From NCBI RefSeq assembly GCF_014250675.1, contig NZ_JACHTG010000004.1, forward strand, positions 124,001 to 188,000: a stretch of 64,000 bases of DNA, given 5' to 3'. Shown one piece after another: positions 30,041 through 42,251 of the stretch. Source of the stretch: Cetobacterium sp. 8H (GTDB lineage: Bacteria; Fusobacteriota; Fusobacteriia; Fusobacteriales; Fusobacteriaceae). Made by a program: the position numbers and the translations under genes. Within the stretch, counting starts at the first letter, position 1. Each line of letters opens with the position of its first letter. The notes under the pieces are model-generated. The model was not told where the DNA came from. It searched no databases and saw only the letters and a list, made by a program, of their open reading frames with translations.

Positions 30041-30077
30041 AAAAAAGTGGGTTCTCATTAGGAACCCACTTTTTTTT
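30041..30077. terminator. Bidirectional terminator between brnQ and purine permease
   Basis: AAGTGGGTTC (30045-30054) pairs with GAACCCACTT (30062-30071), flanked by A6 on the left and T8 on the right, so it works for both converging genes and touches the permease stop codon. Confidence 0.85.
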
Positions 30078-31362
30078 ACTTAAACATTAATTCTATTATT
30101 GAAAAGAAACCTATAGCCCACATTATTGGCTTTATGTCTTTTATTTTTCCATTGAATAAAGATACTAATATGTATGATACAAATCCAAAAGCGATTCCAA
30201 TTGAAATACTATATGTTAATGGCATCATTATTATTATTAAGAAACAAGGTATAGCAACTTCTATTTTATGGAAATTTATATCTAGTAGATTTTTAAACAT
30301 ATATACTCCTACTAATATTAATGCTGGTGCTGTTGCAAAAGCTGGTACAATACCTATTATTGGAGAAAAGAACAATGATACTACAAATAAGAAAGCTGTC
30401 GTTAAAGCTGTTAAACCTGTTCTTCCACCTACGGCTATTCCTGATGCTGACTCTACAAACGTTGTTGTTGTTGATGTTCCTAAAAGTGATCCAATTACTG
30501 TTGCCATTGCGTCTGCTTCTAATATCTTACTTACATTTTTTATTTTACCTTTCTCATCAATCATTTCTGCCTCATGAGCACAAGCCATTATTGTTCCTAG
30601 AGAATCAAATAAATCAACAAACATAAATGAAAATATCGATCCTAAAAATATTGGTTGAATAGCTCCTATTATATCTAACTTAAGTGCTATTGGTGCTATA
30701 CTTGGCGGCATCGAAACTACACTTGTAGGTAAATCAACTGCACCAAATACTATTCCTAAAACTGTTGTTATAACTATTCCGATAAGTATTCCACCCTTTA
30801 CATCTCTCATTTCTAGTAGTCCCATTATGGCAAATCCTACTAGTCCTAAAACAACACTTATATTAAACTTACCAAGTCCTACAATAGTAGCTGGATTACT
30901 AATAATTAAACCCATTCCCTGCATTCCTATAAAAGCTATAAAAAGTCCTATTCCTGCTCCTACAGCAAGTCTTAATTCAGAAGGTATCGCATCTATTATT
31001 TTTTCTCTTAATCCTGAAAAAGTAAGTGCTAAGAAAATTATTCCCGATATAAAAACTACTCCTAGAGCTTGTTGCCAAGTAGCTCCATTCCCTAATACCA
31101 ATGTAAATGTGAAGAACGCATTTAATCCCATCCCCGGTGCCATTGCTAATGGAGCATTAACCCAAAGTGCAGTTATTCCTGTACCAATAGCTGATGCTAG
31201 ACAAGTTACAGTTATTAAAGCTCCTTTATCCATACCTGTCATAGATAAAATTGATGGATTAACAAATATTATGTACGCCATTGTTAGAAATGTTGTTACT
31301 CCTGCTATAACCTCTTGTTTTACCGTTGTTCCATGCTCTTTTAATTGAAACAATCTTTCCAT
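30076..31362 (-). CDS. NCS2 AzgA-type guanine/hypoxanthine permease
   Basis: A 428-residue, 14-helix purine:cation symporter of the AzgA/PbuG branch. Landmarks: VKQEVIAGVTTFLTMAYI at the start, MAPGMGLNAFFTF, the segment FMFVDLFDSLGTIM, and TTTFVESASGIAVGGRTGL in the second inverted repeat. Substrate prediction as guanine or hypoxanthine (rather than uracil/xanthine) comes from the AzgA-type motifs and from the guanine-class riboswitch in its leader. AGGAGG precedes the ATG. Confidence 0.9.
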   Translation of the reverse strand: MERLFQLKEHGTTVKQEVIAGVTTFLTMAYIIFVNPSILSMTGMDKGALITVTCLASAIGTGITALWVNAPLAMAPGMGLNAFFTFTLVLGNGATWQQALGVVFISGIIFLALTFSGLREKIIDAIPSELRLAVGAGIGLFIAFIGMQGMGLIISNPATIVGLGKFNISVVLGLVGFAIMGLLEMRDVKGGILIGIVITTVLGIVFGAVDLPTSVVSMPPSIAPIALKLDIIGAIQPIFLGSIFSFMFVDLFDSLGTIMACAHEAEMIDEKGKIKNVSKILEADAMATVIGSLLGTSTTTTFVESASGIAVGGRTGLTALTTAFLFVVSLFFSPIIGIVPAFATAPALILVGVYMFKNLLDINFHKIEVAIPCFLIIIMMPLTYSISIGIAFGFVSYILVSLFNGKIKDIKPIMWAIGFFSIIELMFK

Positions 31363-31403
31363 TTTTTCCTCCTGAATTTATTTAAATTTTTTATTTATTT
31401 TAA

Positions 31404-31431
31404 TAAAAAAGGCCTATATTTAATATAGGCC
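31404..31431 (-). terminator. Riboswitch-controlled intrinsic terminator
   Basis: GGCCTATAT and ATATAGGCC (31411-31431) form a 9-bp hairpin; the minus-strand transcript then has six U. Its 5' arm GGCCTATA can instead pair with TATGGGTC at the 3' edge of the aptamer, giving a mutually exclusive antiterminator. Confidence 0.8.
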
Positions 31432-31461
31432 AGAAAAAGCTTAAACAAAAAATAAGCTATG

Positions 31462-31524
31462 ACCCATAGAGAGCTATTTGAGGTAGCTCGTAGAAACTCT
31501 CCACCGTATCTGGAGTATATATGG
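31462..31524 (-). ncRNA. Purine (guanine-class) riboswitch aptamer
   Basis: Read on the minus strand, this matches the purine riboswitch fold. P2 is CTCCA/TGGAG with loop GATACGG; J2/3 has the invariant GTTTCTAC; P3 is GAGCTA/TAGCTC with loop CCTCAAA, and L2 GG can kiss L3 CC. J3/1 is TCTATGG. The specificity base (C74 in B. subtilis xpt) is C, which predicts guanine/hypoxanthine rather than adenine. P1 is somewhat imperfect (CCATA/TATGG with extra bases before P2). The terminator and permease follow, so the expected logic is OFF with purine. Confidence 0.88.
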
Positions 31525-31548
31525 TAATTTTATTCATTCTTTGCTTTA

Positions 31549-31578
31549 ATATTAGTTTATCTTATCGTCTTTTGTCAA
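31549..31578 (-). promoter_or_regulatory. Promoter of riboswitch-permease transcript
   Basis: On the minus strand, TTGACA (31578-31573), an 18-bp spacer, TAATAT (31554-31549). The predicted start site lies about 17 nt before the aptamer. Confidence 0.65.
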
Positions 31579-31594
31579 GTATTTTTAATTTTTT

Positions 31595-31623
31595 TTGCTT
31601 TTTACAAACAAAAAAAATATAAT
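31595..31623 (+). promoter_or_regulatory. Promoter for threonine aldolase
   Basis: TTGCTT (31595-31600), 17-bp spacer, TATAAT (31618-31623), about 25 bp before the GGGAGG ribosome site. Confidence 0.65.
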
Positions 31624-31660
31624 GGTGTAGTTACAAATTTAATCACGGGAGGAAATGTTT

Positions 31661-32683
31661 ATGAAAAAATCTTTTGCAAGTGACAATTATAGTGGTGTTC
31701 ATCCTAGAATTTTAGAAAAAATATCAGAAGTTAACCTTGGACATGTTTCAGCTTACGGAGCTGACGATGTAACAAAAGAAGCTATTAATGAAATTAAAAA
31801 TATTTTCGGAGATGTAGAAGTTTTCTTCGTTTTTAATGGAACAGGTGCCAATGTTTTATCTTTAGAAGGACTTAAAAATAAAGTGTCCGCTGTTATTTGC
31901 CCAGAGAGTGCTCATATTGTTCAAGACGAAACTGGTGCTCCTTCTAAAATAACCGGTATGCAACTATTAACTGTTCCAAGTGATGACGGTAAATTAGATT
32001 TAGATGCAGCTGAAAAATGGCTAACTTTTAAAAATACTTTTCATAAACCTAATGCTGACATCATCTCTATTAGCCAAACAACTGAATCTGGAACTATCTA
32101 TACTTTAGATGAGATTCGAGCAGTTTCTAAATTTGCTAAAAAACACAATATGTTTCTTCATATGGATGGAGCTAGAATTTCTAATGCGGCTGTGGCTTTA
32201 GGATGTTCATTTAAAGAAATGACTGGGGACTTAGGGGTTGATGTTTTATCTTTTGGTGGAACAAAAAATGGACTAATGTTTGGAGAAGCTATTATATTTT
32301 TCAACAAAGAACTAGCTAAAAATTTTGATTGGATAAGAAAACAAAATCTTCAACTTTATTCTAAAATGAGATTTTTATCTGCTCAATTTATTCCGTATGT
32401 AAAAGAAAACTTATGGTTTGAATGTGCTAAAAATGCAAATGATATTGCTAAATATTTGGAAAAAGAATTAATTTCTATCGATATTTCTATAACAAATGAA
32501 GTTTTAGCTAATGCTGTTTTTGCTATTCTTCCTCCTGAAATTATTCCTTCTTTACAAGAGCATTATCACTTCTATATATGGAATGAAAACAAGCATGAAG
32601 TGAGACTTGTAACCTCTTTTGATAGTACAAAAGAAGATGTAAATAATTTCATAAAAAAAATTAAAGAATTACTAGGAAAATAA
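31661..32683 (+). CDS. Low-specificity L-threonine aldolase
   Basis: PLP enzyme splitting L-threonine (or allo-threonine) to glycine and acetaldehyde. Start chosen at ATG 31661 (MKKSFASDNYSG), 8 bp after GGGAGG; the in-frame ATG 31655 is too close to that site. About 340 residues. Landmarks: the aldolase start FASDNYSGVHP, GTGANVLSL near the cofactor phosphate, HMDGARISNA for the PLP-ring Asp, and the Schiff-base Lys in SFGGTKNG. Monocistronic. Confidence 0.93.
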   Translation: MKKSFASDNYSGVHPRILEKISEVNLGHVSAYGADDVTKEAINEIKNIFGDVEVFFVFNGTGANVLSLEGLKNKVSAVICPESAHIVQDETGAPSKITGMQLLTVPSDDGKLDLDAAEKWLTFKNTFHKPNADIISISQTTESGTIYTLDEIRAVSKFAKKHNMFLHMDGARISNAAVALGCSFKEMTGDLGVDVLSFGGTKNGLMFGEAIIFFNKELAKNFDWIRKQNLQLYSKMRFLSAQFIPYVKENLWFECAKNANDIAKYLEKELISIDISITNEVLANAVFAILPPEIIPSLQEHYHFYIWNENKHEVRLVTSFDSTKEDVNNFIKKIKELLGK

Positions 32684-42129: not shown

Positions 42130-42251
42130 TCACAAGTGTTGTGGCAGGAGCCTTATGGCGTATTATTATCGAACCGTGTCAGATCTGGAAGGAAGCAGCA
42201 CTAAGGTATTTAATGCGGGTATAAGTTTACTCTTGTTATAGCCTTGTGACC
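42130..42251 (+). ncRNA. ffs: Signal recognition particle RNA, small bacterial (4.5S) type
   Basis: About 120 nt. The ends GTCACAAG (42130-42137) and CTTGTGAC (42244-42251) pair to close the hairpin. The universally conserved domain IV is at 42176-42205, with GTGTCAGATCTGG, the GGAA tetraloop and AGCAGCACTAAG, the Ffh-binding symmetric and asymmetric loops. A T-rich stretch follows directly and can act as terminator. No Alu domain is seen, so it is the short form. Confidence 0.95.

What the first reader, a model, noticed from the sequence alone, without database searches (positions are those of the whole stretch)
31404..31524. Guanine-class riboswitch with a readable antiterminator
The aptamer has the P2, P3, loop-loop and J2/3 elements of purine riboswitches, with C at the specificity base. 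The terminator 5' arm (GGCCTATA) can pair over 8 bp with TATGGGTC, which includes the 3' strand of P1. Ligand-bound P1 would free the terminator, so purine should switch the permease off. P1 is imperfect and there may be two extra bases between P1 and P2.
Basis: partly seen in the sequence, partly recalled or inferred. Interest (0 to 1): 0.55.

Follow-up and report, generated by a model that had tools for sequence, protein, structure and literature searches.

The report
Guanine riboswitch before a purine permease
This is an ordinary but genuine RNA switch in a Cetobacterium bacterium that very probably senses guanine and turns off the gene of a purine importer when guanine is plentiful; it belongs to a well-known family.

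Summary
Minus strand 31544-31447 matches Rfam Purine (RF00167) at 56.1 bits, cut-off 37, with C at the specificity base (31469). A 9-bp terminator and U-tract follow at 31431-31403, then an NCS2/AZG-like permease (31362-30076). Nearest named relatives are Cetobacterium. The aptamer precedes this permease in all 10 same-genus genomes with an 89-96% identical copy. The proposed antiterminator (P1 3' strand with terminator 5' arm) is marginal on this sequence alone (25 of 500 shuffles as good), but own partners beat all 20,000 partner permutations across 17 leaders. Predicted action: guanine or hypoxanthine stabilises P1, the terminator forms, the permease is off, as in xpt-pbuX. One correction: J1/2 has three bases; the suspected extra bases are an A-A mismatch at the foot of P2. 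One weakness: a rival fold of the bare aptamer has equal or slightly better computed energy. The genome holds ten purine aptamers, eight guanine-type and two adenine-type; one of the latter precedes a paralogous permease, with its Shine-Dalgarno starting in P1. New member of a known kind; ligand binding untested.

The parts
31549..31578 (-). sigma-70-like promoter: TTGACA (31578-31573), 18-base spacer, TAATAT (31554-31549)
   Evidence: TTGACA at a corresponding place in 11 of 11 same-genus leaders, the window included. The same scan finds 2.1 such sites on average in shuffles, so the support is the conservation.
31447..31544 (-). purine riboswitch aptamer (full RF00167 match with flanks)
   Evidence: 56.1 bits, cut-off 37
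31520..31524 (-). P1 5' strand CCATA
31499..31515 (-). P2 hairpin, 5 bp, loop GATACGG; A-A mismatch 31516/31498 at its foot
31490..31497 (-). J2/3 GUUUCUAC (ligand pocket, U47 and U51 present)
31471..31489 (-). P3 hairpin, 6 bp, loop CCUCAAA that meets L2
31469..31469 (-). specificity base C74 (guanine class)
31461..31468 (-). P1 3' strand plus three bases, UAUGGGUC; alternative partner of the terminator 5' arm (antiterminator)
31438..31458 (-). small hairpin AGCUUA...UAAGCU nested inside the antiterminator loop
   Evidence: folds in 10 of 11 same-genus leaders (1 of 300 mononucleotide shuffles as good here), absent in L069
31403..31431 (-). intrinsic terminator, 9-bp stem 31431-31411 and U-tract
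30076..31362 (-). regulated gene: NCS2/AZG-like purine permease, 428 aa, with AGGAGG before the ATG
   Evidence: PF00860 E 1.2e-45; AZG1 chain E 2.1e-72; no NCBIfam model above its cut-off

Best explanation
This is a guanine-class purine riboswitch acting as a transcriptional OFF switch on a purine permease gene. Transcription probably starts just downstream of TAATAT, near 31542. With little guanine or hypoxanthine, P1 is weak (5 bp). When RNA polymerase has made GGCCUAUA, the P1 3' strand pairs with it instead (with the small hairpin nested inside), so the terminator cannot form and the permease is made. When guanine or hypoxanthine binds (C74 pairing with the purine), P1 is locked, the terminator folds at 31431-31411 and transcription stops. 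Shown here: aptamer match, pocket bases, terminator, permease family, conservation, and own-partner preference of the antiterminator across relatives. Inferred: start site, ligand, direction and co-transcriptional timing.
For: RF00167 match at 56.1 bits. The aptamer lies upstream of the ortholog in 10 of 10 same-genus genomes with an 89-96% identical permease. P1/P2/P3 and kissing-loop pairs on 16 distinct aptamers: 14 of 19 pairs changed on both sides against 7.2 in shuffles, 0 of 500 reaching it; 93.8% of cells paired against at most 53% when slid. Antiterminator: own pairing summed -156.2 kcal/mol against a permuted mean of -110.7 (SD 9.2), 0 of 20,000 permutations as good, for 17 leaders; also 0 of 20,000 for 10 divergent ones. 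Stepwise folding: when the transcript ends at GGCCUAUA the minimum-energy fold is P2+P3+antiterminator (-26.2); when it ends with the terminator stem it is P1+P2+P3 plus terminator (-34.2). C74, U47 and U51 are present. The permease resembles solved adenine/guanine permeases AZG1/AZG2.
Against: No binding or transcription data. It is the lowest-scoring of the ten purine aptamers of this genome. The bare aptamer has a rival fold (GGAGAG of P2 with CUCUCU of P3/J3-1): -15.0 against -14.9 kcal/mol when the RNA ends at P1, -17.5 against -16.0 eleven bases later, and -35.5 against -35.4 for the whole leader with the terminator formed in both. On this sequence alone the antiterminator is marginal (25 of 500 shuffles). 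In the swap test own pairing was strictly the best in only 3 of 22 leaders (many partners are near-identical), and in L060, L074 and L051 it was no better than the swapped mean. One of five pair measures did not exceed shuffles (further pair types, 157 of 500). My platform script labelled six orthologs 'ON' because it took the antiterminator for a terminator.
Confidence: 0.92

Rival explanations
1. Purine riboswitch whose real ligand is not guanine/hypoxanthine (adenine, xanthine, 2'-deoxyguanosine).
For: The solved relatives of the permease are named adenine/guanine permeases. Adenine-type relatives exist in the same genome (L004, L008).
Against: C at the specificity base, whereas the two adenine-type aptamers of this genome carry U there. 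J2/3 GUUUCUAC is unchanged; the 2'-deoxyguanosine classes differ in J2/3 (recalled, not from a call).
Confidence: 0.04
2. A decayed aptamer: the rival hairpin or the short P1 prevents switching and the terminator simply attenuates constitutively.
For: Lowest score of ten in the genome; rival fold of equal or slightly better computed energy.
Against: Pocket bases, loop-loop G-C pairs and antiterminator are intact. P2 and P3 co-vary in relatives, and the canonical fold with P1 is the minimum in 19 of the 22 leaders folded (exceptions L059, which is the window's, L060 and L075). The energies ignore the loop-loop contact and the ligand.
Confidence: 0.04
3. An ON switch, with the ligand helping read-through.
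For: Adenine-type aptamers with terminators before add and ade in this family look like ON switches.
Against: In those the P1 3' strand lies inside the terminator stem; here the terminator starts 37 bases further on and its 5' arm pairs with the P1 3' strand.
Confidence: 0.02

Closest known systems
Bacillus subtilis xpt-pbuX guanine riboswitch (RF00167)
   Same: Three-way junction, kissing loops, J2/3 GUUUCUAC, specificity C, antiterminator/terminator OFF logic (the logic of xpt-pbuX is stated in passages of PMC10907184, and PMC12268651; its sequence features are recalled).
   Different: P2 is one layer shorter with an A-A mismatch at its foot; P1 has only 5 bp; a small hairpin is nested in the antiterminator (xpt details recalled).
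B. subtilis pbuG guanine riboswitch
   Same: Controls a hypoxanthine/guanine permease of the same NCS2/AZG type (recalled; pbuG as part of a purine regulon appears in a reference title seen).
   Different: Different phylum; sequences were not compared here.
Adenine riboswitches pbuE and add
   Same: Same aptamer family.
   Different: U instead of C at the specificity base (recalled) and ON logic. Adenine-type aptamers are found elsewhere in this genome, not at this site.

Membership tests
Purine riboswitch (RF00167) | covariance-model score above the curated cut-off | tested here: met
   56.1 versus 37 bits
Purine riboswitch (RF00167) | P1/P2/P3 three-way junction with G-C kissing-loop pairs | tested here: met
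   the unconstrained fold of the bare aptamer prefers a rival by 0.1 to 1.5 kcal/mol
Purine riboswitch (RF00167) | conserved pocket bases U22, U47, U51, A21-U75 (numbering recalled) | tested here: met
   these columns are invariant in alignment A2, with the caveat that its rows were picked by a pattern containing U51, C74 and U75
Guanine class | C at position 74 | tested here: met
   31469; one search typed base 74 without scoring it
Guanine class | binds guanine/hypoxanthine, not adenine | not testable with these tools
   needs in-line probing or ITC
Transcription-terminating OFF riboswitch | intrinsic terminator whose 5' arm can pair instead with the P1 3' strand | tested here: met
   marginal on the single sequence
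Transcription-terminating OFF riboswitch | ligand raises termination | not testable with these tools
   needs single-round transcription
2'-deoxyguanosine riboswitch | altered J2/3 (recalled) | tested here: not met
   J2/3 is the standard GUUUCUAC

The most novel reading that the evidence does not exclude
The window element is one half of a matched pair. Two 42%-identical AZG-like permeases of one genome sit behind two specificities of the same aptamer. The window copy has guanine-type C74 with a terminator. The paralog (L008) has adenine-type U74 and no terminator; its Shine-Dalgarno begins inside the P1 3' strand (UAUUAGGAGG), which predicts a translational OFF switch for adenine. The nine parsed copies of that second type, from eight genomes of this genus and one of another genus of the family, share this layout; a tenth (L110) could not be parsed. 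A natural adenine-class repressing switch was not found in my searches.
Probability: 0.45. Interest if true: 0.45.

Novelty: new member of a known kind. Interest (0 to 1): 0.2.

Why it matters
It confirms a textbook regulatory RNA in a genus for which my full-text search for Cetobacterium with riboswitch listed three papers, none about its riboswitches by title. It also shows that this genome puts ten genes or operons behind this one aptamer family, and a same-genus relative 15, with guanine-type and adenine-type versions before import, synthesis and breakdown genes. That makes the genus a good natural set for studying how one aptamer is wired to different outputs.

Tried and rejected
Adenine, 2'-deoxyguanosine and ON-switch readings: rejected on C74, J2/3 and architecture. 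Single-sequence proof of the antiterminator: marginal, so I rely on the swap test, in which the terminator was simply the lowest-energy hairpin before a T-run; its arm is doubtful in L074, L075 and L078. A whole-leader alignment used mis-set coordinates for several minus-strand loci and was used for no count. The first aptamer parser mis-set base 74 in several loci because its P3/L3 lengths were too rigid; it was replaced. The automatic platform classes are unreliable for C74 loci: of 147, 118 were given a downstream terminator, 16 were called ON and 13 got none. Six of the 16 (L103, L104, L131, L132, L183, L189) are orthologs of the window element in which the antiterminator was mistaken for a terminator; the other ten were not resolved.

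Full report
Observation. The minus strand of 31544-31447 matches Rfam's Purine model over its whole length at 56.1 bits, against a curated cut-off of 37. Reading the parts directly, P1 is CCAUA/UAUGG, J1/2 is UAU, P2 is CUCCA/UGGAG with loop GAUACGG, J2/3 is GUUUCUAC, P3 is GAGCUA/UAGCUC with loop CCUCAAA, and J3/1 is UC. The last C (31469) is the specificity base of the guanine class (numbering and role recalled). A 9-bp stem with U-tract follows at 31431-31403; it is the only terminator-like site found in 31300-31700, where shuffles give 0.1. The promoter-like TTGACA-18-TAATAT ends at 31549. Shuffles give about two such sites in this stretch, but TTGACA sits at a corresponding place in 11 of 11 same-genus leaders, the window included.

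Correction of detail. The suspected two extra bases between P1 and P2 are not there: J1/2 is three bases, and 31516 and 31498 are an A-A mismatch at the foot of a 5-bp P2.

Where it is. The permease query returned Cetobacterium records as its nearest relatives (96%, 90%, 90%, 90%, 90% and 86% identity). The genome is held as G000 (2.57 Mb). The gene behind the leader is a 428-aa PF00860 permease. No NCBIfam model passes its cut-off. The solved relatives found by sequence are the adenine/guanine permeases AZG1 and AZG2 (3 distinct sequences listed).

Conservation. Ten of the eleven other same-genus genomes carry an 89-96% identical permease; the eleventh, G001, is 82% complete and its best match is 57% identical. 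In all ten the Purine model hits just upstream on the same strand. Of 11 loci given to (of the 19 found) 10 have it; the miss is Fusobacterium mortiferum L048. Of 16 mostly more distant loci 9 have it (L072 weakly, 44.3 bits), and L073, L079, L080 and L082-L085 do not. Nineteen aptamers picked by a pattern (16 distinct) support the aptamer pairs: 93.8% of cells paired, 14 of 19 pairs with two-sided changes, none of 500 shuffles reaching these two values, and slid versions at 34-53% paired. One measure, further pair types, did not exceed shuffles (157 of 500). The pattern contained U51, C74 and U75, so their constancy in that set is by construction.

The switch. Own pairing of the P1 3' strand with the terminator 5' arm was compared with swapped partners for 22 leaders. 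For a set of 17, after dropping five near-identical ones, the summed energy was -156.2 kcal/mol against a permuted mean of -110.7 (SD 9.2), with 0 of 20,000 permutations as good; for ten divergent leaders it was also 0 of 20,000. Striking cases are GGUCUC/GAGACC in L072 and GGGCCA/UGGCCC in L071. Against this, own pairing was strictly best in only 3 of 22 (many partners are near-identical), L060, L074 and L051 pair no better with their own partner than with the average one, and on the window sequence alone 25 of 500 mononucleotide shuffles do as well. Folding prefixes of the window transcript gives P2+P3+antiterminator when the RNA ends at GGCCUAUA (-26.2), and P1+P2+P3 plus terminator when it ends with the terminator stem (-34.2). 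This is what a co-transcriptional switch needs, though timing and ligand were not modelled. A small hairpin between P1 and the terminator is nested in the antiterminator loop. It folds in 10 of 11 same-genus leaders; one pair near its base is G-C in the window and L060 and A-U in the other eight.

A weakness. The bare window aptamer has a rival hairpin of equal or slightly better computed energy: -15.0 against -14.9 at the end of P1, -17.5 against -16.0 eleven bases later, -35.5 against -35.4 for the whole leader. Of 22 leaders folded alone, only the window's and L060 prefer this rival; L075 prefers another non-canonical fold. The computation ignores the kissing loops and the ligand.

The wider set. 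The genome has ten purine aptamers above cut-off. The first genes found behind them are two PbuX/NCS2-type permeases (L001, L005; L001 just under the pbuX cut-off), purE (L002), two amidohydrolases of the deaminase/chlorohydrolase group (L003, L007), adenosine deaminase (L004), a Crp-like regulator (L006, 237 bases downstream, so its link is uncertain), GMP synthase (L009), and two AZG-like permeases (L008 and the window's L010). In the 61 genomes searched 45 have at least one match, with up to 17 in one genome. I fetched 174 loci out of 243 matches (my sum of the column). Of these, 172 could be parsed (misses L110 and L156) and two more, L219 and L222, were dropped as mis-parses. Of the remaining 170, 147 have C74 and 23 have U74. 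The 23 lie before adenosine deaminase (9), adenine deaminase (3), the L008-type permease (9) and a PnrA/Bmp-type lipoprotein (2, in tandem). Gene names rest on a family search for one member of each group and on like N-termini for the rest. In the first two groups the P1 3' strand lies inside the terminator stem, which predicts ON logic. In the third there is no terminator and the Shine-Dalgarno begins within P1, which predicts translational OFF. I found no report of a natural adenine-class OFF switch in searches; these cover only open-licence papers, and I saw only listings and passages.

Literature seen. PMC2258182, PMC10907184 and PMC12268651 were seen as passages found by term. They give the xpt-pbuX OFF and pbuE ON logic, B. 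[quoted passage not shown] Other papers were seen only as search listings.

Verdict. A genuine guanine-class riboswitch with standard terminator logic; a new member of a known kind.

Noticed in passing
L008 (G000:C3:46553-46650, +) and L111, L130, L134, L138, L182, L194, L197, L215: Adenine-type (U74) purine aptamers directly before an AZG-like permease. No terminator, and the Shine-Dalgarno UAUUAGGAGG begins in the P1 3' strand: predicted translational OFF switch for adenine.
   Followed up: partly
L004 and L025, L030, L108, L109, L135, L137, L181, L184; L157, L162, L221: Adenine-type aptamers before adenosine deaminase and adenine deaminase, with the P1 3' strand inside the terminator stem: predicted ON switches of pbuE type.
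   Followed up: partly
L150 and L161 (G014:C3:142883-142984 and 143038-143139): Two tandem U74 aptamers before a PnrA/Bmp-type lipoprotein. The kissing-loop pair is swapped in both: L2 ends GC and L3 begins GC, so one G-C has become C-G.
   Followed up: no
L140/L034 (G002:C11:87050-87339) and L168/L163 (G014:C38:7237-7525): Pairs of divergent purine riboswitch matches back to back on opposite strands.
   Followed up: no
window 42142-42241 +: Bacterial small SRP RNA (RF00169, 55.6 bits).
   Followed up: no
L072:3066-3142, L081:2817-2892, L070:4086-4235: ZMP/ZTP and fluoride riboswitch matches above cut-off, and a glycine riboswitch match below its cut-off (91.8 of 110 bits), near permease relatives in other genomes.
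   Followed up: no
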